Notes under the pieces: model-generated
Database searches by the model: none
What the model was told of the DNA's origin: nothing
What the model saw: only the letters and a program-made list of their open reading frames with translations
Shown here: positions 17-15,693 of the stretch, one piece after another
Layout of the letters: every line of letters starts with the position of its first letter
How positions within the stretch are numbered: the stretch's first letter is position 1
Made by a program: the position numbers and the translations under genes
NCBI RefSeq assembly: GCF_913773995.1
Contig: NZ_CAJYES010000070.1
Coordinates: 1-45,274, forward strand
Direction: 5' to 3'
DNA: 45,274 nucleotides
Source of the DNA: an uncultured Pseudacidovorax sp.
GTDB taxonomy: Bacteria > Pseudomonadota > Gammaproteobacteria > Burkholderiales > Burkholderiaceae_C

Positions 17-577
17 ATGAGCGCCGTCGCCCTTGCCCCCGCGTTGGCGGCCAGCGACCTAGCGCCCGGCGGCGGCGCCCCAGTGCCCTGGAGCGACGAG
101 GTCCTGCACCCGCGCCTGCTGCGCACCGTGCTCGGCTGCTACCCCACCGGCGTGGCCATCGTGGCCACCCGCAGCGCCGACGGCCGGCCGGTGGGCCTCA
201 CCATCAACTCCTTCGCTTCGCTGTCGCTGGAGCCGCCGCTGGTACTGTGGAGTCTGGTCAACCGCTCGCCCAGCCTGCAGGCCTTCCGGGACTGCACGCA
301 CTTCACGATCAGCGTGCTGGGCTGCTCGCAGGAAGCCCTCGCGCGGCACTTCGCCAATCCGGCGGTGCCCGACAAGTTCGATGGCATCGCCGTCATGGAA
401 GCCCCCGAGGGCGTGCCCGCCATCGCAGGCGCTGCCGCCACGCTGGTGTGCGCCAGCGATCACCACCGCGAGACAGGCGACCATCATCTGCTCGTGGGCC
501 GCGTCCTTCGCGTGGCGCGCAGCGAGACGGCGCCGCTGGTGTTCCATGGGGGGCGGTTCACGGGGTTGGCGGCTTGA
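17..577 (+). CDS. Flavin reductase family protein
   Basis: Product of 186 residues with the flavin reductase (FMN-binding split-barrel, HpaC/StyB-like) fold. After a ~30-residue variable N-terminus comes YPTGVAIVAT, the pyrimidine-stacking segment GLTINSFASLSLEPPLVLW, and a C-terminal HHLLVGRV strand. Such proteins reduce free FAD/FMN with NAD(P)H and hand it to a two-component monooxygenase. The ATG is preceded by GAGG at a usable distance, although only 16 bases of upstream sequence are in the window. The nearest obvious partner is the StyA-like monooxygenase at 10970, so this could be its StyB-type reductase; that pairing is inferred, as HigBA, the AraC gene and the minus-strand operon lie between them. 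Family assignment is firm, partner is not. Confidence 0.85.
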   Translation: MSAVALAPALAASDLAPGGGAPVPWSDEVLHPRLLRTVLGCYPTGVAIVATRSADGRPVGLTINSFASLSLEPPLVLWSLVNRSPSLQAFRDCTHFTISVLGCSQEALARHFANPAVPDKFDGIAVMEAPEGVPAIAGAAATLVCASDHHRETGDHHLLVGRVLRVARSETAPLVFHGGRFTGLAA

Positions 578-599
578 GCCGACCGATGCGATGGCCGGC

Positions 600-616
600 A
601 GTCCCAATTTGGGACT
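600..616. promoter_or_regulatory. 17-bp perfect palindrome, probable HigA operator
   Basis: AGTCCCAATTTGGGACT is a perfect inverted repeat with 8-base arms and one central base, ending 11 bases before the higB start codon. TAAACT at 616-621 could be the -10 hexamer. Antitoxin/toxin complexes commonly repress their own operon through such a palindrome overlapping the promoter, so this is the expected operator for the downstream pair. Binding is inferred. Confidence 0.65.
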
Positions 617-627
617 AAACTTGCGCG

Positions 628-930
628 ATGCGGATCATCGCCGTCAGCGCCCTGCGGGACTACTGGTCATCGCATCCCGATGCCAGGAGGCCACTGCTGG
701 CGTGGGTCGAAGAAGTACAGGCCGCGCAATGGCGCACGCCGGCTGACGTGAAGGCAAGTTTCCGTAACGCAAGCATCCTGCCCGGCCGGCGGGTGGTGTT
801 CAACATCAAGGGCAACGACCACCGGCTGGTGGTGGCCGTGGCCTATGCCTTCGGCGCCGTCTACATCAAGTTTGTTGGCACGCATGCAGAGTACGACCTC
901 ATCGACGTGCACAACGTGGAGCCTGAATGA
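628..930 (+). CDS. higB: HigB-family toxin (type II toxin-antitoxin mRNA interferase)
   Basis: A 100-residue basic protein of the HigB/RelE-like superfamily. Family hallmarks are the ADVKASFRNASIL segment, the central RRVVFNIKGNDHRLVV strands, and the C-terminal YIKFVGTHAEYDLIDV block that carries catalytic residues in relatives. Members cleave ribosome-bound mRNA and arrest growth. The toxin gene precedes the antitoxin gene, the order typical of higBA, and its TGA overlaps the antitoxin ATG in an ATGA, implying translational coupling. No truncation is visible, so the toxin looks intact. Confidence 0.88.
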   Translation: MRIIAVSALRDYWSSHPDARRPLLAWVEEVQAAQWRTPADVKASFRNASILPGRRVVFNIKGNDHRLVVAVAYAFGAVYIKFVGTHAEYDLIDVHNVEPE

Positions 931-1316
931 TGAACCTGCAACTGCACCCCATCTGCAGCGAGGCGGATTACCGCTCGGCGCTGAAGGCGGCGGAAGCCTT
1001 CTTCGACGTGCCGGAGGAGCCTCGGCCCGACAGTCCGGAAGGCGCTTATTTCGAGGCGCTGATCACGCTGATCGAAGCGTACGAACGCAAGCATTTCCCG
1101 ATGGATCCGCCCGACCCGGTGGATGCCATCAAGTTCCGCATGGAGCAGGCCGGCCTCACGGTGGCAGATCTGGTGCCCTACATCGGGCCCCGCCACCGGG
1201 TTTACGAGGTGCTCAATCGCAAGCGCCCGCTGACGATGCCGATGATCCGGCGCCTGATGAACCTGGGCATTCCTGCACAGTCCCTGATCGGCCCGGCGGA
1301 ACCGGTCACCGCCTGA
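927..1316 (+). CDS. higA: HigA-family antitoxin, XRE-type HTH
   Basis: A 129-residue antitoxin (128 if the second of two adjacent ATG codons is used). The N-terminal ~75 residues (SEADYRSALKAAEAFFDV and following helices) resemble the toxin-neutralising part of HigA. The C-terminal ~55 residues hold a helix-turn-helix: AIKFRMEQAGLTVADL, then NRKRPLTMPMIRRLMNLGI. It should bind and neutralise HigB and, with it, repress the operon through the palindrome at 600-616. It overlaps higB by four bases. Confidence 0.87.
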   Translation: MMNLQLHPICSEADYRSALKAAEAFFDVPEEPRPDSPEGAYFEALITLIEAYERKHFPMDPPDPVDAIKFRMEQAGLTVADLVPYIGPRHRVYEVLNRKRPLTMPMIRRLMNLGIPAQSLIGPAEPVTA

Positions 1317-1398
1317 GGACTGATGTTCCCGAAGGCGCCCGCGCAGGCGTCTGCGCAGCCCCGACACTATTTGCAGACGATGCAGTGAGCGCCAAGAT

Positions 1399-2406
1399 TC
1401 AATGCCGCCGCACCGTCTCGCTCGGGTACTCGCCGAAGCGCGCACGGTAGTCGGCGCTGAAGCGTCCCAGGTGGCCGAAGCCCCAGCGCAGCGCGACGCC
1501 GGCCACATGGGTGCTGCCGCCCAGCAGTTCGGCACGGGCCCGCTCCAGCCGCAGGTCCTTGAGGTACTGCATGGGGCTCACGCCGAGGAATTCCCTGAAG
1601 CCCGCATAAAGGCTGCGCACGCTCACACCGGCCACCTCTGCCAGTTGATCAGCGCACAGAGGCTCGTGTGCATGGGCCTGGATGTGGTCCTGTACACGGC
1701 GCACATGGCGCGGCAGCACGGCATTGCAACGTGCAGGCGACGCATGGCTGTGGTTGTGCGGCTGCACCGACAGCAGCGTGGCCGCCACCAGTTGCCCGAC
1801 CTGCTGGCTCACCAGTCGGTGCTGCGACACGTCCATGTCCTGCGCCATCATCTCCTGCAGGTAGCCCAGCAGGTGCATCCACATGGCGTTGTCGCGCCAG
1901 CCGAAACCCAGCTGGAAGCGCACCGGCGCGTCGAGCGCACGGCCCAGTTGCAGCGCCAGCGTGCGCTCCACCAGCGCGCGCGAGACGCGCACCATGAGCT
2001 GCTGGTTGTCGGCCGACCAGCGCATCACCGTGTCCTCGCTCGGGCTGAGCACCGTGGCCTCGTGCGGGCCGGAGTCGCTGTGCTGGCCACCGCTGTCGAC
2101 CTGTGCACGGCCGGCCAGCGGCATCTGTACCAGGAAGAAGTCTTCCAGCGGACCGGGCTGGATCTCCACCTCGGCGCCGTAAGCCAACAAACTCAGCGAG
2201 ACGTCGCCGAAGCTGGCATGGTGCATGCGCGCATCCAGGCGCTGGGCGCGACCGGCCACGTCCAGCCGGTGCGGCTTCATGACGCTGCCCACGCGCAGCC
2301 GCGTCTCTTCGAGATCGGCCGAGGCGAAGAAGGGCCGCAGTGGCCGCGCGGCCGGCAGGGGGGCAGAGGGTTGGCGGGAGAAGAAGGCACTGGCAGTGGG
2401 GTTCAT
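1399..2406 (-). CDS. AraC-family transcriptional regulator
   Basis: 335 residues. Residues ~25-215 resemble the AraC-binding-like sensor domain. Residues 232-335 form the double-HTH AraC/XylS DNA-binding domain, with LCADQLAEVAGVSVRSLYAGF as the first helix-turn-helix and the C-terminal signature GFGHLGRFSADYRARFGEYPSE. The chosen start (MNPTASAF) has GAGG about 8 bases upstream; a longer reading frame to 2505 exists, but its extra 33 residues are arginine- and proline-rich and look non-coding. It lies just beyond the terminator of the anthranilyl-CoA operon, in the same orientation, and shares a 24-bp upstream box with that operon. It is the best local candidate for the pathway regulator. 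Indole-monooxygenase clusters in other bacteria also carry AraC-type activators, which fits the StyA-like gene nearby. Confidence 0.88.
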   Translation of the reverse strand: MNPTASAFFSRQPSAPLPAARPLRPFFASADLEETRLRVGSVMKPHRLDVAGRAQRLDARMHHASFGDVSLSLLAYGAEVEIQPGPLEDFFLVQMPLAGRAQVDSGGQHSDSGPHEATVLSPSEDTVMRWSADNQQLMVRVSRALVERTLALQLGRALDAPVRFQLGFGWRDNAMWMHLLGYLQEMMAQDMDVSQHRLVSQQVGQLVAATLLSVQPHNHSHASPARCNAVLPRHVRRVQDHIQAHAHEPLCADQLAEVAGVSVRSLYAGFREFLGVSPMQYLKDLRLERARAELLGGSTHVAGVALRWGFGHLGRFSADYRARFGEYPSETVRRH

Positions 2407-2526
2407 GACGGGGCCTCGTGTCACGCGTTGCCGGGTCTGCGGGTGGCGTATTGCGGGCGGGCGATGCCGGCAGCGGTGCTGAACCGTTAGCAAGATCGGC
2501 GCCACGGCGTGCGCGCTGCCGTGGTG

Positions 2527-2550
2527 CAGTTAATTTAGTCCTGAAGCAAT
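2527..2550 (-). promoter_or_regulatory. Shared 24-bp box upstream of the AraC-type gene
   Basis: The core TTTAGTCCTGAAGCAAT (2534-2550) matches TTTAGTTGTCAAGCAAT at 10762-10778 in 14 of 17 positions. Over 24 bases (2527-2550 versus 10755-10778) I count 19 matches. Both copies lie upstream of minus-strand transcription units in the same orientation, so they are probably sites for one regulator or a common promoter element. The role is inferred. Confidence 0.5.
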
Positions 2551-2621
2551 GTGGACGCACTCGGGGGTTGCACGGACTCGGAGACTGCTTGGCGATCAGG
2601 AAGGGCTCCCCCTCTCCCCAG

Positions 2622-2644
2622 CCCTCTCCCGCGAGGGGAGAGGG
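2622..2644. repeat. GC-rich dispersed hairpin repeat (CCCTCTCCC...GGGAGAGGG)
   Basis: Nine-base perfect arms CCCTCTCCC (2622-2630) and GGGAGAGGG (2636-2644) around a 5-base loop, embedded in C-rich sequence from about 2606. Spurious translations of this family read SPSPQPSPARGEG, a string seen in many beta- and gammaproteobacterial genomes, so it is probably a dispersed intergenic repeat. No T-tract follows, so a terminator role is unlikely. Confidence 0.6.
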
Positions 2645-2659
2645 AGTATTGGGGAAGCC

Positions 2660-2701: not shown

Positions 2702-2780
2702 GGGGTGCCAAGTGCACGGGGCTGACGTGCGAAGAGCAAAGGGCCTGCAGCTGGGCCTGGGCGGTGGGGGACAAATGAAA

Positions 2781-2800: not shown

Positions 2801-2830
2801 CTTGCTGCGGGGGGTGCGCGCGACGAGCGC

Positions 2831-3223
2831 TCAGTCGGGCACCACGGCGGTGACTTCGATCTCCACCTTGGCGCGGTCCTCCACCAGCGCCGACACCTCC
2901 ACTGCCGTCATCGCGGCGTTGTAACAGTTGATCAGCTCGCGAAAGTGCTTGCCGATGGCCGGGTAGGCGGCAACGTATTCGCGCTTGTCGGTCACGTACC
3001 AGGTCATGCGCACGATGTGCTCGGGGCTGGCGCCGGCTTCGCGCAGCACCTCCACGATGTTCTGCAGCGCCTGGCGCACCTGCTCGCCAAGATCGTCGGT
3101 ATGGAAAATGCCCTGCGCGTCCCAGCCGATCATGCCGGCCACGAAGACCATGCGGCCACGGGCGGTGACGCCGTTGGCATAGCCCTTGGGGCGCGGCCAG
3201 CCGGGAGGAAGAAGAACTTGCAT
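2831..3223 (-). CDS. RidA-family protein (YjgF/YER057c/UK114)
   Basis: 130 residues with the RidA fold: GRMVFVAGMIGWDAQG, then DLGEQVRQALQNIVEVLREAGAS, VRMTWYVTD, and the C-terminal VEDRAKVEIEVTAV strand. Classical RidA enzymes hydrolyse enamine/imine intermediates. As last gene of an operon that should generate a dearomatised amino-cyclohexenyl-CoA (an enamine), an imine-hydrolysing role would fit. However, aligned by eye on the KVEIE strand, the position of the catalytic Arg105 of E. coli RidA appears to hold Leu; an Arg occurs four residues later in EDR. It may therefore belong to a non-archetypal Rid subfamily with a different or modified activity. Confidence 0.85.
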   Translation of the reverse strand: MQVLLPPGWPRPKGYANGVTARGRMVFVAGMIGWDAQGIFHTDDLGEQVRQALQNIVEVLREAGASPEHIVRMTWYVTDKREYVAAYPAIGKHFRELINCYNAAMTAVEVSALVEDRAKVEIEVTAVVPD

Positions 3224-3251: not shown

Positions 3252-3731
3252 TCAGTTCAGGGCCGGATCGGGCGCAAAGCGCAGCAGCGCGTCGCGCACG
3301 TCCGGCGGGATGTCGATGGCGCGGTGCGTCTGCAGGCTGGTGAAGACCAGCACCTGCCGCGAGGCCACGCGCAGTTCGCCATCGGTGCCGGTGCATTGCA
3401 GCGCCAGCGTGAGCGAGCGGCCACCCGCGCGCTCCACCGCCAGGCCCAGCTCGACGGTGTCGCCCAGCCGGCTGATGGCGCGGAAGTCGCATTCCAGCCG
3501 CACGATGGGCAGGCCGATGTGGCGGCCGGCGATCATGCCGGCGTAGTTGACGCCCAGGCTCTCGTTGAACCAGTCCTCCACCAGCTGGTTGAACATCACC
3601 AGGTACTGGGGAAAGAAGACGATGCCGGCGGGGTCGCAGTGCGAGAAGCGGATGAGCTGCGTGCGCGTGAAGCGGCCCGGCGGCGCGTCGGCGGTCTCGG
3701 CCGGGTCGACAGAGGTGGCGACGCGGATCAC
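3252..3731 (-). CDS. Acyl-CoA thioesterase, 4-hydroxybenzoyl-CoA thioesterase family
   Basis: 159 residues with a single hot-dog domain. The active-site segment HCDPAGIVFFPQY lies at residues 31-43, with Asp33 corresponding to the catalytic Asp of Pseudomonas 4-hydroxybenzoyl-CoA thioesterase. Typical family length is 135-150 residues, and the first ~20 residues here are an unconserved extension. It overlaps the upstream ligase gene by four bases (ATGA), so it is translationally coupled. In an aryl-CoA pathway it probably releases CoA from dead-end or accumulating thioesters rather than performing an on-pathway step. The substrate is inferred. Confidence 0.85.
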   Translation of the reverse strand: MIRVATSVDPAETADAPPGRFTRTQLIRFSHCDPAGIVFFPQYLVMFNQLVEDWFNESLGVNYAGMIAGRHIGLPIVRLECDFRAISRLGDTVELGLAVERAGGRSLTLALQCTGTDGELRVASRQVLVFTSLQTHRAIDIPPDVRDALLRFAPDPALN

Positions 3732-5416
3732 GAGGCGGCCCCCGTTTGTTCCGCAGGCGTGGCCGGGGTGGTCCCCGTCGTCGGCGCCATCGCGCTCGCC
3801 TGCGCCGCCTGCTTGAGCACGAAGCGCTGCAGCTTGCCCGTCTGCGTGCGCGGCAACTGCGCCACGAAGACCACCGAGCGCGGGTACTTGTACGGCGCGA
3901 CGGTCGCTTTGACGAAGTCCTGCAGCGTGCGCACCATGGCCTCGCCCGCTTCGCCCTGGCCGGCACGCAGCACCACGAAAGCCTGCACGATCTGGCCGCG
4001 GTCAGCGTCGGGCGCACCGATGACGGCGCATTCGGCCACGGCCGGGTGCTGCATCAGCGCCTCTTCGACCTCGGGCGCGGCGATGTTGTAGCCGGCCGAG
4101 ATGATCATGTCGTCGGTGCGCGCCTGATAGAAGAAGTAGCCGTCGGCGTCCATGAGGTACGCATCGCCGGTGAGGTTCCAGCCACCCTGCACGTACTGCG
4201 CCTGGCGCGCATCCGACAGGTAGCGGCAGCCTGTCGGGCCCTGCACCGCCAGGCGGCCGACGGTGCCTGGTGGCAGTTCATGGCCGGCCTCGTCCACGAT
4301 GCGGGCGCGATAGCCGGGCACGGGCTTGCCCGTGGCGCCGGGCCGCGCGCTGGCCTCGTCGTGCGAGATGAAGATGTGCAGCAGTTCGGTCGAGCCGATG
4401 CCGTCGATCAGCTCGATGCCGGTCGCCTGCTTCCACAGTGCGCGGGTGGTGGCGGGCAGCGCCTCGCCAGCCGACACGCACTTGCGCAGCGGCGTGGCGC
4501 GCAGCACGGCGCCCTGCTCGGCCAGCAGCCGATACGACGTCGGCGCGGTGAACAGCACCGTGGCGCCGAAGTCCTGGATGCCCTGAAGCAGTTGCGCCGG
4601 ACCGGCCTTCTCCAGCAGCACGGTGGATGCACCCACATGCATGGGAAAGAGCACCAGCCCGCCGAGCCCGAAGGTGAAGGCCAGCGGCGGGCTGCCGATG
4701 AACCGGTCGTCGGCCGTGGCGCGCAGCAGGTGCGGCGGCCAGCAGTGGCACACCGCCATGACGTCGCGGTGGAAGTGCATGGTCGCCTTGGGCACGCCGG
4801 TGGTGCCCGAGGTGAAGCCGAACAGGCAGGTGTCGTCGGCTGCCGTGTCGACGTTGTCGAAGACGGGCGAGGCCGTGGCCATCAGGGCCTCAAGGCTTTC
4901 GGGCCCGTCGGCATGAAAGTGGCGGATGTGCTGGAGCAGCGGCGCCTTATGCGCGGCCAGCGCCAGCTCCTCGGCCAGGGCGGCATCGCACAGCGCATGC
5001 GTCACCTGGCCGATCTCGAGGATGGGCACCAGCTCCTTGGCGCGCAGCAGCGGCATGGTGGCGACGGCGATGCCGCCGGCCTTCATCACCGCGAACCAGC
5101 AGGCCGCCAGCATCGGGTTGTTGGGCGCGCGCAGCAGCACGCGGTTGCCCGGCACCAGGCCCATCTGCTGTACCAGCACGTTGGCGATGCGGTTGGCCTT
5201 GTCCTGCAGCTGGGCATAGGTCCAGCGCAGGCCGGGTGCCAGGATGCAGGGCCGGTCGCCACGGCCTTCGGCCACGTGGCGGTCCAGCAACTCGGTGGCG
5301 CAATTCAGGCGCGCGGGCATCTGCAACTCGGGCAGCTCGAAGATGAACTGCGGCTGCTGCTCAGGCGGCGGCAGGTGGTCGCGCGCGAAGGTGTCGACGT
5401 GGGCGCTGGCGGTCAT
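3728..5416 (-). CDS. Aryl-CoA ligase, probably 2-aminobenzoate-CoA ligase (AMP-forming)
   Basis: 562 residues of the ANL adenylating superfamily, benzoate-CoA ligase branch. Visible core motifs: the phosphate-binding FTSGTTGVPK at 201-210, GSTELLH at 341-347, TGD at 416-418, the hinge TDDMIISAGYNI at 434-445, and the C-terminal PRTQTGKLQRF with the catalytic Lys at 528. The PARLNCATELLD start is typical of benzoate/aminobenzoate ligases. It would convert anthranilate, ATP and CoA into 2-aminobenzoyl-CoA, the substrate of the monooxygenase/reductase encoded at the head of the same operon. Benzoate or salicylate are alternative substrates; the operon context favours anthranilate. It lies 22 bases after the acyl-CoA dehydrogenase stop. 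Confidence 0.88.
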   Translation of the reverse strand: MTASAHVDTFARDHLPPPEQQPQFIFELPELQMPARLNCATELLDRHVAEGRGDRPCILAPGLRWTYAQLQDKANRIANVLVQQMGLVPGNRVLLRAPNNPMLAACWFAVMKAGGIAVATMPLLRAKELVPILEIGQVTHALCDAALAEELALAAHKAPLLQHIRHFHADGPESLEALMATASPVFDNVDTAADDTCLFGFTSGTTGVPKATMHFHRDVMAVCHCWPPHLLRATADDRFIGSPPLAFTFGLGGLVLFPMHVGASTVLLEKAGPAQLLQGIQDFGATVLFTAPTSYRLLAEQGAVLRATPLRKCVSAGEALPATTRALWKQATGIELIDGIGSTELLHIFISHDEASARPGATGKPVPGYRARIVDEAGHELPPGTVGRLAVQGPTGCRYLSDARQAQYVQGGWNLTGDAYLMDADGYFFYQARTDDMIISAGYNIAAPEVEEALMQHPAVAECAVIGAPDADRGQIVQAFVVLRAGQGEAGEAMVRTLQDFVKATVAPYKYPRSVVFVAQLPRTQTGKLQRFVLKQAAQASAMAPTTGTTPATPAEQTGAAS

Positions 5417-5438: not shown

Positions 5439-6602
<1,164 letters not shown>

Positions 6603-6691
6603 GTCAGGACTCCCGCCGGGCCGCCCCAAGGGAGGCCTGCGCCCCCTCGGGGGGCAGCGAATACACGAAGTGATGAGCGTGGGGGCACATG
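6603..6691. repeat. Intra-operon GC-rich hairpin spacer
   Basis: The 89-base gap between the hydratase and dehydrogenase genes contains GCCCCC (6641-6646) pairing with GGGGGC (6650-6655), followed by a stretch reading CAGCGAATACACGAAGTGA. Very similar CCCCGAGGGGG-type spacers recur between genes in Comamonadaceae as I recall them, so this is probably a lineage-specific dispersed repeat. It might partly attenuate downstream expression. No gene fits here. Confidence 0.5.
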
Positions 6692-7552
<861 letters not shown>

Positions 7553-7605: not shown

Positions 7606-8376
7606 TCACATGACCTCGCCGCCCGCCACGGAAATGGATTGGCCGGTCACGGCGCCCGCGCCCTGGCCGCACAGCCAAGCCACGGCATCGGCCACCTCGT
7701 CGGGCTGCACCAGGCGGCCCTGGGGGTTGCTCTTGACGAACTCGGCCCGTGCGGCCTCGGGGCTGCGGCCCGTCTTGGCGACCACACGCTCGATGCTCTG
7801 GCGCACGATGTCGGTCTCGGTGTAGCCCGGGCACACGGCGTTGACGGTGATGCCCTTGGTCGCCAGTTCCAGCGCCAGCGAGCGGGTGAGGCCCACCACA
7901 CCGTGCTTGGCCGCGCAGTAGGCCGACACGTAGGCATAGCCCACCTGCCCCGCCGTGCTCGCCACGTTGACGATGCGGCCCCAGCCCGCCGCCAGCATGC
8001 CGGGCAGCACGGCCTGGCTGCAGACCATCGTGCCGGTCAGGTTGACGGCCAGCATGCGCTGCCAGAGCGCCATGTCCATCTTGTGGAAGGGCGCGCTCTC
8101 GGCCTGGCCGGCGTTGTTGACCAGCGCGGCGACGGGGCCGAAGCGGCTTTGCGCCTCGGCCAGCGCGGCCGCCACCGCCCCGGCATCGGCCACGTCGGCG
8201 CTGACGGCGAACAGGTGTTCGGTATCTCCGGCGGCCACGGCCTGCACGGCCTCGGCGCTGCGACCGAGCACGGTCACGTGCCAGCCTTCGGCCACCAGCC
8301 GCCGCGCAATGGCGGCGCCGATGCCGCGGCCGCCACCGGTCACCAGCGCATGGCGCGATGCGGTGGTGCCGCTCAC
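7606..8376 (-). CDS. SDR-family dehydrogenase (3-hydroxyacyl-CoA dehydrogenase-like)
   Basis: 256 residues of a classical short-chain dehydrogenase: cofactor motif TGGGRGIG at 13-20, NNAG at 87-90, catalytic Ser140, Tyr153 and Lys157 (YCAAK), and the PGYTETD loop. It should oxidise or reduce a hydroxy/keto group with NAD(P)(H), probably a 3-hydroxyacyl-CoA formed after the hydratase step. Its ATG overlaps the stop codon of the upstream monooxygenase/reductase gene by four bases, which supports a shared transcript and coupled translation. The substrate is inferred from context only. Confidence 0.9.
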
Positions 8377-10712
8377 TTGCCGGCCCCCGCCGCCTCAGCC
8401 ATGGCCTTCTCGCGCGCGAAGTTGGCTTCCATCTGCGGCTTGGCCGACCGGTACTGCTTGGGCCAGGTGATGGCCGTGTAGCCGATCTTGGCGGCCTCGG
8501 TCAGCGTCCAGGCCGGGTTGGCCAGGTGCGGACGCGCCACCGCGCACAGGTCGGCGCGGCCTGCGGCCAGGATGCTGTTGGCATGGTCGGCCTCGCTGAT
8601 CGCACCCACGGCGATGGTGGGGATGCCCGCCTCCTGCCGGATGCGGTCGGCGAAGGGCGTCTGGAACATGCGGCCGTAGACCGGCTTTTCCTTCTTGCTC
8701 ACCTGGCCCGAGGAGCAGTCGATCAAGTCCGCGCCCGCGGCCTTGAAGGCACGGGCGATGGCCACGGCGTCCTCGGGCGTGATGCCGCCCTCGACCCAGT
8801 CGTGGGCCGAGATGCGCACCGAGATCGGCTTGTCGACCGGCCAGGCCTCACGCACGGCGGCGAACACCTCCAGCGGATAGCGCAGCCGGTTCTCCAGGGA
8901 GCCGCCGTATTCGTCGGTGCGCTGGTTGGTCAGCGGCGAGATGAAGCTCGACAGCAGGTAGCCGTGGGCGCAGTGCAGTTCCAGCCAGTCGGCGCCGGCC
9001 TCCGCCGCGGCGCGGGTGGATGCGACGAACTGCGCCTTGACCTCCGCCATGTCCTCGTGCGTCATGCCGCGCGAGAGCTGGCTCACGCCCTCCAGGTACT
9101 GCTGCGGCGATGCCGACAGCAGCGGCCAGTTGCCCGACTCCAGCGGCTGGTCGATGCCCTCCCACGCCAGGCGGGTGGAGGCCTTGGCGCCGGCATGGCC
9201 GATCTGGATCGCGAACTTCGCATCGCTGTTGGCGTGGATCCAGTCCGCGATGCGCTTGAAGGCCACCGTGTGCTCGGGCTTGTAGAGGCCCGGGCAGCCG
9301 GGGGTGATGCGGCCTTCGGGGCTCACGCAGGTCATCTCGGCGAAGACAAGGCCGGCGCCGCCCATGGCGCGCGCGCCCAGGTGCACCAGGTGGTAGTCGC
9401 CGGCCACGCCGTCCACCGCCGAGTACTGCGCCATGGGCGAGACGACGATGCGGTTCTTGAGGGTGACGCCACGCACCGTGTAGGGCGTGAACATGGGCGG
9501 CGGCGGGGTCTTGCCTTCTGGGACCGGTACGTCGGCACGTTGCGCGAACCAGCGCTCGTAGCCTTCGAGCCAGCCGCGGTCGCGCAGGCGCAGGTTCTCG
9601 TGGCTGATGCGCTGACTGCGCGTGAGCATCGAGTACATGAACTGCTCCGGCTCCAGCTGATCGCAGTAGCGCTTGCCGCAGACCTCGAACCATTCCATGG
9701 CGTTCCAGGCGGCGTTCTGGATGCGCAGCGTCTCCACGCGGCGGGCTTCCTGGTAGGCCTTCAGCACCTCGGGGATGTGCTCGCGGGTATCACCTTCGCG
9801 GACGAACAGGCGGGCCAGCTCGATGGCGTCCTCGATGGCCAGCTTGGTGCCGGAGCCGATGGCGAAGTGCGCCGTGTGCACCGCGTCGCCCATCAGCACC
9901 ACATGGCTGCCGTGCTCGTTCTGCAGCGACCACTGCTCGCAGACCACGCGCTGGAAGTTGATCCAGGCCGAGCCGCGCAGGTGCCGGGCATTGGTCATCA
10001 GCTTGGCGCCCTGCAGGTCGCCGGCGAAAAGCTTCTCGCAGAAGTCGATGGACTGCTGCTGGTCGGCCTGGTCCAGGCCGTGGGCCTTCCAGGTGTCCTC
10101 GGTGGTCTCGACGATGAAGGTCGAGGTGGTGTCGTCGAACTTGTAGATGTGGGCCTGGAACCAGCCGTGCTCGGTGCGCTGGAAGTCGAAGGTGAAGGCC
10201 TCGTAGACCTTGTTGGTGCCCAGCCAGATGAAGCGATTGGGCCGCGCCACGATGTCGGGCTTGAAGACGTCGGCGTACTTGCTGCGGATGCGCGAGTTGA
10301 CACCGTCGCTGGCGATGATGAGGTCGGCGTCTGGATAGTCGGCGTCGCTGTCGGCCTCGGTCTCGAACACCAGGTTGACGCCCAGCGCCTCGCAGCGCGC
10401 CTGCAGGATGTTCAGCAGCTTCTTGCGGCCGATGCCCACGAAGCCGTGGCCGCCCGAGCGGATGCGCCGGCCCTTGAACAACAGCTCGATGTCGTCCCAG
10501 TGGTTGAAGGCCTGCTCGATCTCGTCGGCCGTCTCGCGGTCGCAGGCGCGCATGTTCTCCATGGTGGCGTCCGAGAAGACCACGCCCCAGCCGAAGGTGT
10601 CGTAGGGCTTGTTGCGCTCGACCACGGTCACCTCGTGACCGGGGTTGTGCTTCTTCATCAGCAGTGCGAAGTACAGGCCGGCCGGCCCGCCGCCGATGCA
10701 GACGATGTTCAT
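8373..10712 (-). CDS. 2-aminobenzoyl-CoA monooxygenase/reductase-like fusion (salicylyl-CoA 5-hydroxylase/oxidoreductase type)
   Basis: 779 residues with two fused domains. Residues 1-~395 are a class A FAD monooxygenase: [14 protein letters not shown] dinucleotide motif at 5-18, [13 protein letters not shown] at 134-146, and [16 protein letters not shown] at 275-290. Residues ~405-770 are an old-yellow-enzyme-type FMN oxidoreductase, with [22 protein letters not shown] at 505-510 and [11 protein letters not shown]. This architecture is that of the Azoarcus evansii 2-aminobenzoyl-CoA monooxygenase/reductase, which hydroxylates and then reduces the aromatic ring using NADH and O2. First gene of the operon; RBS AAAGGAG precedes MNIVCIGG. 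Automated pipelines often name it salicylyl-CoA 5-hydroxylase; the linked CoA ligase and downstream genes favour anthranilate. Confidence 0.9.
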
Positions 10713-10754
10713 GGAGAGGCTCCTTTGCGATGGCTTGGGATGGAGTCTCCTCCT

Positions 10755-10778
10755 CATTTAGTTTAGTTGTCAAGCAAT
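10755..10778 (-). promoter_or_regulatory. Shared 24-bp box in the divergent promoter region
   Basis: TTTAGTTGTCAAGCAAT (10762-10778) contains the imperfect palindrome TTAGTTG-T-CAAGCAA, resembling sites for MarR-type regulators. It lies 43-66 bases upstream of the monooxygenase/reductase start and in the 257-base gap shared with the StyA-like gene. A related copy lies at 2527-2550. Read on the minus strand it contains TTGACA, a consensus -35 hexamer, though I see no good -10. An operator role is inferred. Confidence 0.5.
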
Positions 10779-10969: not shown

Positions 10970-12217
10970 ATGAGCCGCAAGATCGCCATCGTCGGAGCGG
11001 GCCAGTCCGGCCTGCCCCTGGCCCTCGCCCTGCAGGGCCGGGGCGACACCGTCACCCTGGTCACCAACCGCAGCCCGGACGAGTTGCGCCGTGGCAAGGT
11101 GATGTCCAGCCAGTGCATGTTCGACAACGCGCTGCAGATCGAGCGCGATTTCGGCCTGGACCTGTGGGCGGACGACTGCCCGCCCGTGGAGGGCATCGGT
11201 CTCACGGTGCCGCACCCCGAGCAGCCGGGCGAGCGCCTGATCGACTGGTCGGCCCGACTGGACCGGCCAGCGCAGGCGGTGGACCAGCGGCTGAAGATGC
11301 CGGCCTGGATGGAGCTGTTCCGCGAGCGCGGCGGCAACCTGGTGTTGCAGGACGCTGGGATCGCCGAGCTGGAAGAGTTGGCTGCCACGCATGACCTGGT
11401 GGTGGTGTCGGCCGGCAAGGGCGAGATCGTTCGCCTGTTCGAGCGCGACCCGGTGCGCAGCGTGTTCACGCAGCCGATGCGCGCGCTGGCCCTGACCTAT
11501 GTGCACGGCATGACGCCGCGCACGCCCTACTCGCGCGTGTGCTTCAACCTGATCCCGGGCGTCGGCGAGTACTTCGTCTTTCCCGCGCTGACGCTCAGCG
11601 GGCCGTGCGAGATCATGGTGTTCGAAGGCGTGCCGGGCGGCCCGATGGACTGCTGGAGCGACATCCGCACGCCCGAGGACCATCTGCGGCAGAGCCTGAA
11701 GATCCTCGACACCTACCTGCCCTGGGAGGCCGAACGGTGTCGCGACGTGCGCCTGACCGACGACGGCGGCGTGCTGGCCGGCCGCTTCGTGCCGACCGTG
11801 CGCCGACCCGTGGGCACGCTGCCCTCGGGCCGCCAGGTCCTCGGCATGGGCGACGCGGTGTGCGTGAACGACCCGATCACGGGTCAGGGCTCCAACAATG
11901 CGACCAAGGCCTTCAAGGTGGTGCACGACGCGATCGTGGCGCGTGGCGACGCGCCCTTCGACGCCGCGTGGATGAATGCGACCTTCGAGCGCTTCTGGGA
12001 CTATGCCCAGCACGTGGTGCGCTGGACCAACACGCTGCTGGAGCCACCACCGCCCCATGTGCTGAACCTGCTGGGCGCGGCGGGCCAGATCCCGGGCGTG
12101 GCGCATGTCATCGCCAACAACTTCAACCATCCGCCGGGGTTCTTCCCGTGGTGGACCGATGCGCAGGCCTGCGAGCGGTTCATCGCTGACCAGGCGGGGG
12201 CTGCTGTACCAGCTTGA
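10970..12217 (+). CDS. StyA-like styrene/indole monooxygenase (FAD-dependent, two-component)
   Basis: 415 residues. The N-terminal KIAIVGAGQSGLPLALALQGRG is the FAD-binding Rossmann motif, followed by VTLVTNRSPDELRRGKVMSSQCMF, which matches the StyA arrangement (TDRKPDE and following). The central block TPYSRVCFNLIPGVGEYFVFPAL and the C-terminal GDAVCVNDPITGQGSNNATKAF (second FAD motif with the QGxN signature) also follow StyA, as does the overall length. Such enzymes use FADH2 from a separate reductase to epoxidise styrene or indole. AGGAGA precedes the ATG. Divergent from the anthranilyl-CoA operon, an indole-oxidising role feeding anthranilate is attractive but inferred. The flavin reductase at 17-577 is the possible partner. 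Confidence 0.85.
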   Translation: MSRKIAIVGAGQSGLPLALALQGRGDTVTLVTNRSPDELRRGKVMSSQCMFDNALQIERDFGLDLWADDCPPVEGIGLTVPHPEQPGERLIDWSARLDRPAQAVDQRLKMPAWMELFRERGGNLVLQDAGIAELEELAATHDLVVVSAGKGEIVRLFERDPVRSVFTQPMRALALTYVHGMTPRTPYSRVCFNLIPGVGEYFVFPALTLSGPCEIMVFEGVPGGPMDCWSDIRTPEDHLRQSLKILDTYLPWEAERCRDVRLTDDGGVLAGRFVPTVRRPVGTLPSGRQVLGMGDAVCVNDPITGQGSNNATKAFKVVHDAIVARGDAPFDAAWMNATFERFWDYAQHVVRWTNTLLEPPPPHVLNLLGAAGQIPGVAHVIANNFNHPPGFFPWWTDAQACERFIADQAGAAVPA

Positions 12218-12275
12218 TCGGCTGCCGCGAGTCGGCTCGTCGGCTCGTCGGTCGGTGGTCCGTTGGCGATGGTCC

Positions 12276-12523
12276 GGCCCTGGCGCCGGTGAGGGCGTGG
12301 CGGCGCTTCAAGTGGGGCGGTCGGCGCTGCGCGCCGACTCCCCTCCGGTGCTCGGACAGACGGGCCGCGGCAGAACTCGCTACGCGCTTCGCGCTGCGCT
12401 CAAACAACTGCCGCGAGTCAGATCACGAAGCAGGCCTGTCCTTCGGCAGGCCCGCAGCCCGTCCGCCCTGCGCTCCTCGGCACCCCACAGGCGCGCCGCC
12501 ACGCCCTCACCGGCACCAGGGCC
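12276..12523. repeat. Structured repeat element, copy 1
   Basis: Bounded by 31-base inverted repeats at 12276-12306 and 12493-12523 with one mismatch. The inside carries a hairpin GTCGGCG/CGCCGAC (12320-12338) and a 77-base core (12376-12452) that matches the reverse complement of 12865-12941 at 73 positions by my count. No convincing protein is encoded. The second copy lies at 12793-13042 in inverted orientation. Confidence 0.75.
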
Positions 12524-12574
12524 TACGTTGGGGGTGATCGGCCGGCACTACGTCCTGCACCCCGCACTCCGCAC

Positions 12575-12652
<78 letters not shown>

Positions 12653-12693
12653 CTCTGCGCCGAAGCGTGCTCACTTGCCGTCCTGGCTGGACT

Positions 12694-12714
12694 CCTTCCC
12701 CCACTGGGGGAAGG
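12694..12714. repeat. 21-base palindromic hairpin
   Basis: CCTTCCCCCA and TGGGGGAAGG pair around a single C, giving a perfect 21-base palindrome. It is similar in style to the hairpin at 2622-2644 and is probably another dispersed intergenic repeat. No T-tract follows immediately. Confidence 0.65.
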
Positions 12715-12792
12715 CAGGGATGGGGGCCAGTGCGCCGTTACGGTTGGTGTGCAGACAATCCCTGCCTTTTTGATGCCCAACGCGCGTCTCCA

Positions 12793-13042
12793 CGCGCCGG
12801 CGCTGGGCCCAGGGCGCGCGGGCGATTTCGGGGTCGGCGAGGCGCGCAGGATGGACGGGCTGCAGGCCTGCCGAAGGACAGGCCTGCTTCGTGATCTGAC
12901 TCGCGGCGTTTGTCTGAGCGCAGCGCGGAGCGCGTAGCGAGTTATGCCGCGTGCCCGTCCATCCGAGCACCGCAGCGGAGTCGGCCCGCAGGGCCGACCG
13001 ACCCCGTATGAACCCGCGCGCCCTGGGCCCGGCGCCGGCGCG
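12793..13042. repeat. Structured repeat element, copy 2 (inverted)
   Basis: Bounded by 30-base inverted repeats at 12793-12822 and 13013-13042 with one mismatch. Their sequence differs from the terminal stems of copy 1. The internal hairpin at 12980-12998 is GTCGGCC/GGCCGAC on the opposite strand, where copy 1 has GTCGGCG/CGCCGAC: a swapped base pair that keeps pairing. The 77-base core at 12865-12941 is the inverted match to copy 1. The remaining parts of 12218-13233 show no supported gene. Confidence 0.75.
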
Positions 13043-13233
13043 CACCCCATGCCCGGCACCGGCGCGCACCCCGGCCCCCCCACCGAGCACACGGAACCCG
13101 CCGCCCTCTGAACACCTCGTTCATGGCAACTGCGAGAGACCCGACAACCGAGCCACAAACTTCCGTCGCGATTCGGATAGCCACCCGCCCGAACCGGATA
13201 GCCCCGAACGACAGCCAAGGCAAAGATGCCCCC

Positions 13234-14832
13234 ATGGCAAGCCCCGCAACCTCAGCCCCAGACGACGTGCTGCTCATCGGCAGCGGCATCAACGGCCTCG
13301 TGTGTGCCGCCCTGCTCGCCCGCAAGGGCCGCAAGGTGCGCGTACTGGAGCGCGAGGCCACGCTCGGCGGCTGCATCCGCACCGACGAGCTGACGCTGCC
13401 CGGCTTCCAGCACGACACGCTCTCCACCGCGCATCCGCTCTTCCTCGTCGGCCCTGCCTACGCAGCCCTCGGCAAGGCGCTGCACGAGGCGGGCCTCGCC
13501 TACTGCAACACCGACAGCCCCACCGGTGTGCTGATGCCCGATGGCCGCCACCTGGTCCTGTCCACCTCGCGCCAGCTCAACCGCCAGCGCATGGAAGCGC
13601 TGCATGCCGGCGACGGCGCGGCCTTCGTGCAGACGCTGGAGGGCATGGCCGAGCGCGCCCCACTGGTCTTCTCCTTGCTGGGCAACGAGCTGTGGAAATT
13701 CGACACCGCCCGCACCCTTGCCGGCGCCGCCTGGAAGGACGGCCCACATGCCTTGGCCGGCTTCTTCGGCGAAGCCCTGACGCCCGCCCGGCCCTGGCTG
13801 CAGCAGCGCTTCGGGTCGGACCTGGTCGGCGCGCTGCTTGCGCCCTGGGTACTGCATTGCGGCCTGGGGCCGGACTCTCCACTCTCCGCGCTGATGGCGC
13901 AGGTCGTCGCGTTCACGCTGGAGGCGGTGGGCATGCCGCTGGTCCAGGGCGGCAATGCCAACACCGTGCGCGCCTTCGAGCGGCTGATCCGCGACGCCGA
14001 CGGCACGCTGGAGACCGGCTGTGATGTCGAACGCATCCTGGTCGAACGCGGCCGCGCCGTCGGCGTGCGGCTGGTCGGCGGTCGCGAGCTGCGGGCCGGC
14101 GAGGTGGTGGTCAGCGCCACGCCCACGCAGCTCTACGGCCGCCTGCTGGCGCCCGAGCACATCCCGCCCGAGATCGCCGGCCAGGCCCGTCAGTGGCGCT
14201 ACGGCAAGGGCAACATGCAGATCCACCTCGCGCTCTCCGAGCCGCCGCAGTGGCCGGATCGCGCGCTCGACAAGGTCGGCTACCTGCACCTGAGTGGCGG
14301 GCCGGACGCCATCTCGCGCGCCGTCAACGAGGCCGAGCGCGGCCTGCTGCCTGCCGCGCCCACCATCTGCGTCGCACAGCCCACCGCGCTGGACCCGAGC
14401 CGAGCGCCCGAAGGCCGGCACATCCTGTGGATCCAGCTGCCCGAATGCCCGCGCGAGCCCGTCGGCGATGCGGCCGGCGAACTGGAGGTGCCGCCCGGCG
14501 GCCAATGGACGGAGACACTGCGCGAGGCCTATGCGGACCGCGTGATCGCCCAGATCGCCCGCCACGCGCCCAACCTGCCCGGCAGCATCCTCGGCCGCGC
14601 CGTGCTCTCGCCGGCGGACCTGCCGCGCCTCAACATGAACCTGGTGGGGGGCGACCCGTATGGCGGCGACTGTGCCCTCGACCAGTACTTCCTCTGGCGC
14701 CCCCTGCGCGGGCTGCGCAACCACGAGACCCCGGTCGCCCATCTCTGGCACATCGGCGCCTCCACCCATCCCGGGCCGGGACTCGGCGGCGCGTCGGGTG
14801 TGCATGTGGCCCGGGCCCTCGGGGCCCTGTGA
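13234..14832 (+). CDS. FAD-dependent oxidoreductase, phytoene desaturase/PYROXD2-like
   Basis: 532 residues from the chosen ATG (MASPATSAPDDVLLIGSG). The N-terminus has LLIGSGINGLVCAALLARKGRKVRVLEREATLGGCIRT, the dinucleotide-binding motif with the GG-doublet of the amine oxidase/phytoene desaturase superfamily. The C-terminal HLWHIGASTHPGPGLGGASGVHVA is the conserved FAD-binding closing motif. Function is unknown; PYROXD2-like bacterial proteins remain poorly characterised. An ATG at 13123 would add 37 residues without homology-like character, and neither start has a strong RBS. The cyclase-family gene follows 72 bases later. A role in oxidising an indole- or tricarboxylate-derived intermediate is only a guess from context. 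Confidence 0.8.
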   Translation: MASPATSAPDDVLLIGSGINGLVCAALLARKGRKVRVLEREATLGGCIRTDELTLPGFQHDTLSTAHPLFLVGPAYAALGKALHEAGLAYCNTDSPTGVLMPDGRHLVLSTSRQLNRQRMEALHAGDGAAFVQTLEGMAERAPLVFSLLGNELWKFDTARTLAGAAWKDGPHALAGFFGEALTPARPWLQQRFGSDLVGALLAPWVLHCGLGPDSPLSALMAQVVAFTLEAVGMPLVQGGNANTVRAFERLIRDADGTLETGCDVERILVERGRAVGVRLVGGRELRAGEVVVSATPTQLYGRLLAPEHIPPEIAGQARQWRYGKGNMQIHLALSEPPQWPDRALDKVGYLHLSGGPDAISRAVNEAERGLLPAAPTICVAQPTALDPSRAPEGRHILWIQLPECPREPVGDAAGELEVPPGGQWTETLREAYADRVIAQIARHAPNLPGSILGRAVLSPADLPRLNMNLVGGDPYGGDCALDQYFLWRPLRGLRNHETPVAHLWHIGASTHPGPGLGGASGVHVARALGAL

Positions 14833-14904
14833 CGACTGCATCCGCGGCCCCCTTCCCTCTTCATCCCTTCCCCGCTCGCACTTTTCCCCACGGAGCCCAC
14901 GACC

Positions 14905-15693
14905 ATGACCGCCTCCCTCGCCCAGTTCGCCCAGGACATCGCCACCGGCGCCCTGCGCGTCGTCGACCTGACGCAGACCCTGTCGCCCCGCTTCCCGGCC
15001 CTGCAGTTGCCGCCGCAGTTCGGCCAAGTGTGGGCCTTCAAGATGGAGCGCATCTCGCAGTACGACGAGGCCGGCCCCGGCTGGTACTGGAACAACTTCT
15101 CCTGCGGCGAGCACACCGGCACGCACTTCGACGCGCCCGCGCACTGGATCACCGGCAAGGACCATCCGGCCAACACGGTGGACACGATCGACCCGAGCGT
15201 GTTCATCGGCCCGGCCTGCGTGATCGATGCCAGCGCCCCGGTGGCCGACAACCCCGACTGGCTGCTCACCGTGGATTTCCTGCGCGCCTGGGAAGAGACC
15301 CACGGCCGCATCCCGGCCGGCGCCTGGGTGCTGCTGCGCACCGACTGGTCCCGGCGCATCGACGACCCCGCCGCCTTCGTCAACATGCGCGAGGACGGCG
15401 CCCACACGCCCGGCCCCACGCAGGAGGCCGTCGAATGGCTGATCGGCGAGCGCAACGTGCGCGGCTTCGGCGTCGAGACCATCAACACCGACGCCGGCCA
15501 GTCCTATGCCTGGCCGATGGCCTACCCCTGCCACACACTGATGCATGGCGCCAACAAGTACGGCCTGCAGTGCCTGAAGAACCTCGACCAGTTGCCGCCC
15601 CAGGGCGCCATCGTGCTGGCCGCGCCGCTGAAGATCGAGGGCGGCTCGGGCAGCCCGCTGCGGGTGCTGGCGCTGGTGGGCGCCGACCACTGA
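14905..15693 (+). CDS. Cyclase-family metal hydrolase (isatin hydrolase/kynurenine formamidase-like)
   Basis: 262 residues. HTGTHFDAPAHW is the metal-binding signature HxGTHxDxPxH of the cyclase superfamily, preceded by VVDLTQTLSPRFP at the N-terminus, as usual. Family members include kynurenine formamidase (about 210 residues) and isatin hydrolase (about 260), both Mn/Zn enzymes hydrolysing an amide next to an aryl ring. Length fits isatin hydrolase better. Together with the StyA-like monooxygenase and the anthranilyl-CoA operon, an isatin to isatinate step is plausible. Many cyclase-family proteins have other or unknown substrates, so the specific activity is tentative. Confidence 0.82.
   Translation: MTASLAQFAQDIATGALRVVDLTQTLSPRFPALQLPPQFGQVWAFKMERISQYDEAGPGWYWNNFSCGEHTGTHFDAPAHWITGKDHPANTVDTIDPSVFIGPACVIDASAPVADNPDWLLTVDFLRAWEETHGRIPAGAWVLLRTDWSRRIDDPAAFVNMREDGAHTPGPTQEAVEWLIGERNVRGFGVETINTDAGQSYAWPMAYPCHTLMHGANKYGLQCLKNLDQLPPQGAIVLAAPLKIEGGSGSPLRVLALVGADH

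What the first reader, a model, noticed from the sequence alone, without database searches (positions are those of the whole stretch)
17..15693. Possible complete indole/isatin-to-anthranilyl-CoA degradation locus
A StyA-like (styrene/indole) monooxygenase, a flavin reductase, a cyclase-family hydrolase of isatin hydrolase size, an AraC-type regulator and a full anthranilate-CoA operon occur within 16 kb. In known bacteria, indole oxidation by StyA-like enzymes gives anthranilate, which is usually degraded by dioxygenation; joining it to the CoA-dependent monooxygenase/reductase route in one locus would be a less-described combination. Gene families are seen in the sequence; the linked pathway is inference.
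Basis: partly seen in the sequence, partly recalled or inferred. Interest (0 to 1): 0.7.

Follow-up and report, generated by a model that had tools for sequence, protein, structure and literature searches.

The report
Indole breakdown locus via isatin
This bacterial DNA carries a real and recurring set of genes that most likely break down indole through isatin to a coenzyme A-bound form of anthranilate, a variant of a known pathway in which two steps still lack a proven enzyme.

Summary
Window 1-15693 encodes an indole monooxygenase (SMO 10970-12217; reductase 17-577), an isatin hydrolase (80.6% identical to the solved Ralstonia enzyme), an AraC regulator and a 2-aminobenzoyl-CoA (ACMR) operon. 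An IifB-type dehydrogenase is cut by the contig end. The host is Pseudacidovorax-like.

The cluster recurs. Of 399 family genomes, 26 carry this monooxygenase: 15 have CrtO-like nearby (13 also isatin hydrolase), 10 the known alternative IifA, none both. ACMR is in 25 of 26 (one partial), so indole plus the CoA route is usual there; it is also in print for Cupriavidus. A Providencia cluster with the same annotated set is published, its "GS-O" (apparently CrtO-like) without function.

Best reading: indole, dihydrodiol, dioxindole, isatin (by CrtO-like), isatinate, anthraniloyl-CoA, ACMR. In many relatives an indolepyruvate-oxidoreductase-like pair (Ior) lies near isatin hydrolase or ACMR, suggesting direct isatinate-to-anthraniloyl-CoA conversion; the window itself has a CoA ligase and no Ior. 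New variant of a known kind; nothing was assayed.

The parts
1..20 (+). 3' end of an IifB-type SDR gene (cis-2,3-dihydroxyindoline dehydrogenase candidate); body on contig G000:C193:12893-13666
   Evidence: SDR ends C193; window bases 3-20 read P-R-L-A-E-stop in its frame; P. intermedius L067 is continuous here
17..577 (+). NAD(P)H:flavin reductase, partner of the monooxygenase
   Evidence: PF01613 E 9e-37; StyB and FerA models below cut-off; beside the monooxygenase in relatives
628..1316 (+). HigB-type toxin (628-930) and probable HigA-type antitoxin (927-1316), a passenger
   Evidence: PF09907 E 1.5e-29 for 628-930; no family for 927-1316; pair seen in L067, not detected in L064 or L068
1399..2505 (-). 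AraC-family regulator
   Evidence: homologue (35% or more) in 23 of 26 monooxygenase loci
2831..3223 (-). RidA-family enamine/imine deaminase of the ACMR operon
   Evidence: PF01042 E 1.7e-23; same operon in L020, L061
3252..3731 (-). 4HBT-family acyl-CoA thioesterase
   Evidence: PF13279 E 1.4e-12
3728..5416 (-). AMP-forming CoA ligase, 2-aminobenzoate-CoA ligase candidate
   Evidence: PF00501 E 5.5e-69; TIGR02262 benzoate-CoA ligase 367.9 bits, just under its 375.25 cut-off
5439..6695 (-). acyl-CoA dehydrogenase (start codon uncertain)
   Evidence: PF00441 E 7.1e-48
6692..7525 (-). enoyl-CoA hydratase (start approximate)
   Evidence: NF006107 503.4 bits, cut-off 330
7606..8376 (-). SDR, 3-hydroxyacyl-CoA dehydrogenase candidate of the ACMR operon
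   Evidence: 76% to the SDR of the L020 operon
8373..10757 (-). ACMR: fused 2-aminobenzoyl-CoA monooxygenase/reductase
   Evidence: NF006101 1382.9 bits, cut-off 1078; FAD monooxygenase plus OYE-type domains
10970..12217 (+). indole monooxygenase (IndA/IifC type)
   Evidence: PF17885; PDB 7z4x E 1.8e-189, StyA 3ihm only 4e-41; indole-monooxygenase fingerprint residues S46 Q48 M50 V73 I76 present
12218..13233 (.). intergenic stretch with inverted repeats (arms up to 121 nt) and a (CCTGTA)n tandem repeat
13234..14832 (+). CrtO-like FAD oxidoreductase (ORF 13123-14832; residues 1-44 of that ORF have pLDDT under 50), dioxindole-to-isatin dehydrogenase/oxidase candidate
   Evidence: CrtO model 202 bits, far below its 1000 cut-off; in 15 of 26 monooxygenase loci, never with IifA; FAD carotenoid-desaturase/amine-oxidase fold
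14905..15693 (+). isatin hydrolase
   Evidence: PDB 5nmp E 6.9e-147, 204 of 253 aligned residues identical; motifs HTGTHFDAPAH, GLQC, WYW

Best explanation
The locus is an isatin-branch indole catabolic cluster joined to the CoA-dependent anthranilate pathway. Proposed steps: (1) SMO with FADH2 from the reductase oxidises indole to the 2,3-epoxide or cis-2,3-dihydrodiol; (2) the IifB-type SDR (mostly on contig C193) oxidises this to dioxindole (3-hydroxyindolin-2-one); (3) the CrtO-like FAD enzyme oxidises dioxindole to isatin, in place of the IifA oxygenase of classical iif clusters; (4) isatin hydrolase opens isatin to isatinate (2-aminophenylglyoxylate); (5) isatinate becomes anthraniloyl-CoA, either by decarboxylation and oxidation to anthranilate followed by the AMP ligase of the window, or directly by an indolepyruvate-oxidoreductase-like enzyme (Ior) encoded elsewhere in this genome; (6) ACMR hydroxylates and reduces the ring, RidA removes the enamine nitrogen, and SDR, hydratase and dehydrogenase continue by beta-oxidation. 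Shown here: presence, family membership and conserved linkage of the genes. Known from others for relatives: steps 1, 2, 4 and the ACMR reaction. Inferred only: step 3, step 5, the RidA role and control by AraC.
For: Gene families and cut-offs. Monooxygenase of indole type. Isatin hydrolase 80.6% identical to the solved enzyme with the three published motifs (motifs from PMC6117287, passages read). Same set SDR-SMO-reductase-isatin hydrolase-CrtO-like in three genomes of three families (L016, L017, L021; AraC beside it in L017 and L021, none in the L016 stretch). Of 26 monooxygenase-bearing family genomes (399 searched), IifA in 10, CrtO-like in 15, both 0, neither 1 (Fisher p 2e-6, not corrected for kinship; thresholds set), with at least 4 label changes on a monooxygenase tree. 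ACMR match in 25 of 26, 24 over the cut-off, against 6 of 56 order-wide controls. In Bacteroidota (L056) nine adjacent genes on one strand: SDR, SMO, reductase, ACMR, isatin hydrolase, IorA, IorB, CrtO-like, thioesterase. Published Providencia cluster with the same annotated set, isatin detected (PMC9871250, passages).
Against: No enzyme, transcript or growth data. SMO and CrtO-like are 1016 bp apart with repeats between, so they may not be one transcript. CrtO-like has only distant solved relatives, so step 3 rests on context. Two of the 15 CrtO-type family loci (G716, G709) show no isatin hydrolase in the fetched stretch; of the 31 CrtO-scan loci 8 show none (two of these, L048 and L053, are cut), and L039, L043, L044, L055 show neither hydrolase nor SMO. 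The ACMR model is named salicylyl-CoA 5-hydroxylase, so family alone does not fix the substrate. One IifA-type genome, G285, and two isatin-hydrolase genomes, G029 and G284, lack full ACMR. The window has no Ior homologue, and some ORFs beyond 23 kb were not scanned for families. The 56 ACMR controls are order-wide, not matched by family. No shared AraC site was found.
Confidence: 0.75

Rival explanations
1. Indole is degraded to anthranilate as in classical iif clusters (dioxindole cleaved directly to anthranilate); isatin is a side product and the hydrolase and CrtO-like enzyme only clear it.
For: The review PMC6221969 (section 8) reports that Sadauskas et al. held isatin to be a dead end or artefact in Acinetobacter. 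G000 has a weak dienelactone-hydrolase homologue (37%, partial).
Against: No full-length IifA orthologue in G000 (best 37% over residues 12-250 of 422, while those in G350, G133 and G285 are 67% or more). IifA and CrtO-like were never seen together in the 26 loci (10 IifA, 15 CrtO-like, 1 neither).
Confidence: 0.1
2. Two independent modules lie side by side: an indole/isatin detoxification cluster and an anthranilate (or salicylate) CoA operon fed by tryptophan or kynurenine breakdown.
For: They are divergently transcribed (212 bp between ACMR and SMO); in many relatives ACMR lies elsewhere in the genome.
Against: ACMR match in 25 of 26 monooxygenase genomes; Ior or SMO beside ACMR in G204, G299, G388, G575, G585, G776 and three Bacteroidota. 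The divergent promoter itself suggests common control.
Confidence: 0.15
3. In relatives the Ior-like pair acts on indolepyruvate or other auxin-pathway substrates and its closeness to isatin hydrolase comes from shared auxin loci, not from acting on isatinate.
For: Ior-first control: of 15 close IorA loci fetched for it (five more, G204, G299, G350, G352 and G388, were left out because already fetched, and a fragment in G126 was not fetched), isatin hydrolase lies within the stretch in 3 and ACMR, CrtO-like or SMO in 0. Of all 21 genomes with close IorA, 8 have no isatin hydrolase. iad auxin loci carry IorAB (PMC9613470 legend), and a segment without iadAB sufficed for anthranilate (PMC12633357, passages).
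Against: Indole clusters involve no indolepyruvate, yet 11 of 11 CrtO-scan loci with Ior at threshold also have isatin hydrolase. 10 of the 21 close-IorA genomes have isatin hydrolase within 10 kb, and so have 11 of 15 isatin-hydrolase genomes if the 58% IorA of G175 is counted. In G299 Ior belongs to an ACMR operon that shows no CoA ligase in the fetched 12 kb.
Confidence: 0.35

Closest known systems
Providencia rettgeri GS-2 indole cluster GS-R/E/O/A/D/C/B (PMC9871250, passages read)
   Same: By the paper's annotations: AraC, oxidoreductase GS-O of 1613 bp, PF04199 cyclase, flavin reductase, SMO and SDR, the set found here
   Different: A catechol route was proposed and CoA is not mentioned (0 occurrences); GS-O had no function and was said to appear only in Providencia, while CrtO-like genes are found here in Burkholderiales and Bacteroidota. 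GS-O itself was not compared by sequence here
iif/ind cluster of Acinetobacter O153 and Cupriavidus SHE (through the review PMC6221969)
   Same: Indole monooxygenase, flavin reductase, SDR, a regulator; in Cupriavidus also a 2-aminobenzoyl-CoA cluster
   Different: IifA turns dioxindole straight into anthranilate; the window has CrtO-like plus isatin hydrolase instead
iad auxin (IAA) loci of Variovorax and Bradyrhizobium (PMC9613470, PMC12633357, passages)
   [quoted passage not shown] IorAB genes present
   Different: First oxygenase is a Rieske type acting on IAA; the iad-like stretches seen here (L058, L062) gave no SMO or CrtO-like hit. The host genome seems to hold such a locus separately (L057/L058)
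Aerobic CoA-dependent 2-aminobenzoate pathway of Aromatoleum/Azoarcus evansii (recalled)
   Same: ACMR with ligase and beta-oxidation-like genes
   Different: There the substrate is anthranilate supplied as such; here the operon adjoins an indole cluster

Membership tests
Indole monooxygenase (group E, IndA/IifC) | Indole fingerprint S46-Q48-M50-V/I73-I76-A96 rather than the styrene one (PMC13101512 section 11) | tested here: met
   S46 Q48 M50 V73 I76 counted from M at 10970; the alanine stands at 95, not 96
Indole monooxygenase (group E, IndA/IifC) | Oxidises indole with a reductase | not testable with these tools
   needs enzyme assay
Isatin hydrolase | HxG[T/A]HxDxPxH, GLQC/GLAS and W/F-x-W motifs (PMC6117287) | tested here: met
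   HTGTHFDAPAH at 70, GLQC at 220, WYW at 60
Isatin hydrolase | Close identity to a solved isatin hydrolase | tested here: met
   204 of 253 aligned residues identical to 5nmp
ACMR (2-aminobenzoyl-CoA monooxygenase/reductase) | Fused FAD monooxygenase and OYE-type reductase over the family cut-off | tested here: met
   NF006101 1382.9 bits against 1078; two domains
ACMR (2-aminobenzoyl-CoA monooxygenase/reductase) | Acts on 2-aminobenzoyl-CoA, not salicylyl-CoA | not testable with these tools
   family model is named for salicylyl-CoA; assay needed
Classical iif cluster | IifA dioxindole oxygenase in the cluster or genome | tested here: not met
   no hit in the window; best in genome 37%, partial. 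That the L018 DLH/SnoaL protein is IifA is inferred from its place and fold class, not from a labelled sequence
Classical iif cluster | IifB-type SDR, SMO and flavin reductase together | tested here: met
   SDR adjoins the reductase across a contig break; SMO 10.4 kb away
CrtO beta-carotene ketolase | Score over the NF045689 cut-off | tested here: not met
   202 bits against 1000; 'CrtO-like' is a label of convenience only
Indolepyruvate ferredoxin oxidoreductase (relatives only) | TIGR03336 alpha subunit cut-off | tested here: not met
   281 bits (L020) and 301 bits (L056) against 650.9; the beta-type subunit is over the PRK08312 cut-off in both

The most novel reading that the evidence does not exclude
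Bacteria have a second, ligase-free end to indole breakdown: dioxindole is oxidised to isatin by the CrtO-like flavoenzyme, opened by isatin hydrolase, and the 2-oxo acid isatinate (2-aminophenylglyoxylate) is oxidatively decarboxylated with CoA by an Ior-type enzyme straight to anthraniloyl-CoA, the ACMR substrate, bypassing free anthranilate and saving ATP. This module alternates with IifA across Burkholderiales and exists whole in Bacteroidota. The window is a Pseudacidovorax form in which a ligase-bearing ACMR operon has moved into the cluster and Ior is perhaps supplied in trans from an auxin locus.
Probability: 0.4. Interest if true: 0.65.

Novelty: new variant of a known kind. Interest (0 to 1): 0.5.

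Why it matters
The 2018 indole review (PMC6221969, section 8) lists as open whether isatin is a true intermediate of indole degradation and calls isatin hydrolase worth functional identification. The swap between IifA and CrtO-like plus isatin hydrolase makes that question directly testable by single gene deletions. It also gives candidate genes for two steps without a proven enzyme (dioxindole to isatin, isatinate to anthraniloyl-CoA), the second of which would also bear on IorAB (IadAB) in auxin-degrading bacteria.

Tried and rejected
Rejected: that 12105-12773 or 12523-13218 between SMO and CrtO-like is a gene (no family; repeats). Rejected: that TcuA/TcuB/TctC/LysR at 15851-20547 belongs to the pathway. 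Rejected: that the monooxygenase is a styrene monooxygenase (StyA model 221 bits against 550; fingerprint). Rejected: that joining indole and the CoA route is rare (PMC6221969). Led nowhere: Rfam on the window (0 matches); sigma-70 promoter scan of 1-16000 (0 found); search for a shared AraC site between promoters (no better than shuffles); CrtO-like against solved structures by sequence (only weak hits) and by fold (carotenoid desaturase/amine oxidase class), which does not settle the reaction. Against my reading: the Ior-first control found isatin hydrolase in only 3 of 15 close IorA stretches, and ACMR, CrtO-like and SMO in 0 of 15; among 20 more distant IorA stretches, isatin hydrolase in 1 and a partial ACMR-type hit in 1. 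These 15 left out five close IorA genomes fetched earlier (G204, G299, G350, G352, G388) and the fragment in G126. In three of the 15 (G029, G138, G207) the hydrolase lies just outside the stretch, 8.5-9.6 kb from IorA. Over all 21 genomes with close IorA, 10 have the hydrolase within 10 kb, 3 on another contig, 8 not at all.

Full report
WHAT IS THERE. The ACMR operon 2831-10757 is compact (gaps -4 to 71 bp): RidA, thioesterase, AMP ligase, acyl-CoA dehydrogenase, enoyl-CoA hydratase, SDR, ACMR. It is transcribed away from the monooxygenase, with 212 bp between them. The nearest named relatives of the region are Pseudacidovorax (97%, 96% and 96% for CrtO-like in L026, L027, L028).

THE MISSING FIRST GENE. 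Relatives start the cluster with an IifB-type SDR (PRK08265). In this genome the orthologue ends contig C193, and the first 20 bases of the window are its last codons, its stop overlapping the reductase start. In the Pseudacidovorax genome G399 the whole locus lies on one contig: SDR, reductase, AraC, ACMR operon, SMO, CrtO-like, isatin hydrolase (L064 and L065). In P. intermedius SDR, reductase, HigBA and AraC are continuous (L067) and the rest is on another contig (L027). So the reductase at 17-577 is most likely the partner of SMO although it stands 10.4 kb from it. L072 (G464) shows a perhaps older layout: SDR, SMO, reductase, AraC, second SMO, CrtO-like, isatin hydrolase; inference: in Pseudacidovorax the first SMO was lost and the ACMR operon came in.

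ENZYME IDENTITIES. The monooxygenase matches PDB 7z4x (E 1.8e-189), far better than styrene monooxygenase 3ihm (4e-41); that 7z4x is the indole monooxygenase VpIndA1 is recalled, the entry bears only a generic name. It carries the indole fingerprint quoted in PMC13101512 section 11 with the last alanine one place off. The PF04199 protein is identical in 204 of 253 aligned residues to Ralstonia isatin hydrolase 5nmp, whose paper PMC6117287 I read in passages, and has its three motifs. The CrtO-like enzyme has no close solved relative; its model (mean pLDDT 79.7) is nearest a carotenoid desaturase (TM 0.72 on query length, 17% identity), a fold class of FAD dehydrogenases and amine oxidases. Residues 1-44 of the longest ORF have pLDDT under 50, so the start is probably Met 38 (13234).

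IS THE NEIGHBOURHOOD CONSERVED? An order-wide search found this monooxygenase in 8 of 399 genomes; a family-wide one in 26 of 399. I fetched up to about 10 kb on either side where contigs allowed (for G000 the whole window was used) and scored neighbours by thresholds that I set after a first look. Of the 26, 15 have CrtO-like, 13 isatin hydrolase (one cut by a contig end), 10 IifA, 0 both IifA and CrtO-like, and one (G779, contig end) neither. Fisher p is 2e-6, without correction for kinship; on a quick monooxygenase tree of 45 rows the two labels need 4 changes, all forced by starred branches, so the exclusion does not come from one split. Both types occur within the host's own genus (G569 against G469, G645, G768). 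A scan of named genomes with CrtO-like alone (31 loci; at least five of them are the same contigs as family loci) gave isatin hydrolase in 23, SMO in 15, ACMR at 50% identity or more in 10, IorA in 11, IifA in 0; three loci hold SMO, hydrolase and ACMR at those thresholds (L026, L027, L037, the last with ACMR cut by the contig end). Three Bacteroidota loci (L049, L050, L056) also carry a more distant ACMR (40-41% identity over 93-98% of the length; 897 and 927 bits for the two scanned, under the 1078 cut-off).

THE CoA LINK. ACMR matches at E 1e-200 in 25 of 26 monooxygenase genomes (G709, 89% complete, lacks it; G667 has only a partial match under the cut-off) and in 10 of 10 IifA-type family ones, against 6 of 56 order-wide controls (not matched by family). 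G285, an IifA-type genome of another family, has no full ACMR, and of 15 isatin-hydrolase genomes 13 have it (not G029, G284). So the CoA route is the usual companion of this monooxygenase in the family rather than a rarity. The review PMC6221969 (section 8) states that Qu et al. 2017 proved a 2-aminobenzoyl-CoA cluster vital for anthranilate degradation; I saw that paper only through the review.

THE ISATINATE STEP. In G299 the ACMR operon shows no CoA ligase in the fetched 12 kb; directly upstream of ACMR in the same direction stand a TPP-enzyme subunit and a POR/DUF6537 subunit (L020), an indolepyruvate-oxidoreductase-like pair (beta type over, alpha type under its cut-off). The pair lies in the indole locus of 7 of 15 CrtO-type family genomes at the set threshold (an eighth, G587, falls just under it) and 0 of 10 IifA-type ones, next to ACMR in G204, G575, G585 and G776, and between isatin hydrolase and CrtO-like in the Bacteroidota loci, where L056 has nine genes in a row and no CoA-ligase hit. 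But Thiomonas-type loci L035 and L036 hold both Ior and a CoA ligase. Isatin hydrolase at 60% or more is in 15 of 399 order genomes; 13 of these have close IorA against 8 of the other 384 (p 2e-17, kinship not corrected), and 11 of 15 have IorA of 58% or more within 10 kb. Since isatinate is a 2-oxo acid, 2-aminophenylglyoxylate, an oxidative decarboxylation with CoA would give anthraniloyl-CoA, like the phenylglyoxylate oxidoreductases (recalled). Results against this: starting from IorA, only 3 of the 15 close loci fetched for that control show isatin hydrolase in the stretch and 0 of 15 ACMR (five known close ones were not among them, see Tried and rejected); several lie in loci that look like iad auxin loci, which carry IorAB by PMC9613470 (legend); and a Variovorax segment without iadAB still made anthranilate (PMC12633357, passages). 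That preprint also reports that C8H7NO3 and C7H7NO build up strongly only in strains overexpressing that segment; I read these as isatinic acid and 2-aminobenzaldehyde, which would fit the lack of an isatinate-using enzyme. In the window's genome close Ior occurs in an apparently split iad-like locus (C105 and C55), so the window's own ligase route stays equally possible.

WHAT IS NEW. The gene set without ACMR is in print for Providencia (PMC9871250, passages), which left GS-O without function and said it appears only in Providencia; GS-O matches CrtO-like in size, annotation and place, though I did not compare its sequence. My searches for isatin hydrolase, isatin with anthraniloyl-CoA, isatin with indolepyruvate ferredoxin oxidoreductase, indole degradation with isatin and gene cluster, indole with anthraniloyl- or 2-aminobenzoyl-CoA, and isatinate/isatinic/isatic acid listed no paper whose title or shown start of abstract assigns the dioxindole or isatinate step in indole clusters; I opened eight papers in passages or single sections, and the library lacks most subscription journals. 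Hence: new variant of a known kind, interest 0.5.

Noticed in passing
window 628-1316: A HigB-type toxin gene with an overlapping small downstream gene stands between the flavin reductase and AraC; present in P. intermedius L067 but not detected in L064 or L068.
   Followed up: partly
window 12218-13233: Inverted repeats (arms of 121, 52, 45 and 31 nt, 87-97% complementary) around a (CCTGTA)n hexamer array between SMO and CrtO-like; a gap of similar size exists in L069, while L072 has only about 230 bp there.
   Followed up: partly
window 15851-20547: Tricarballylate utilisation genes TcuA and TcuB, a TctC receptor and a LysR regulator directly follow the isatin hydrolase.
   Followed up: yes
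window 20551-23092: NrsF anti-sigma, an ECF sigma factor and an MbnB/TglH/ChrH-family RiPP-modifying enzyme lie together, a possible ChrH-type RiPP locus.
   Followed up: no
window 18482-41497: Four TctC-type tripartite tricarboxylate receptor genes within about 23 kb.
   Followed up: no
L058 (G000:C55) and L057 (G000:C105): An iad-like auxin locus with a second isatin hydrolase (64%) and IorA/IorB, IorB seemingly split over two contig ends.
   Followed up: partly
L030 9546 onward: Variovorax beijingensis holds only a partial SMO match (36% of the length in all) just before CrtO-like, isatin hydrolase and Ior, possibly a decayed copy.
   Followed up: no
L031, L033, L035, L036, L038, L045, L047, L051: CrtO-like plus isatin hydrolase without an SMO hit in the fetched stretch, in Variovorax, Thiomonas, Achromobacter, Bordetella and unnamed proteobacteria; the upstream substrate there is unknown.
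   Followed up: no
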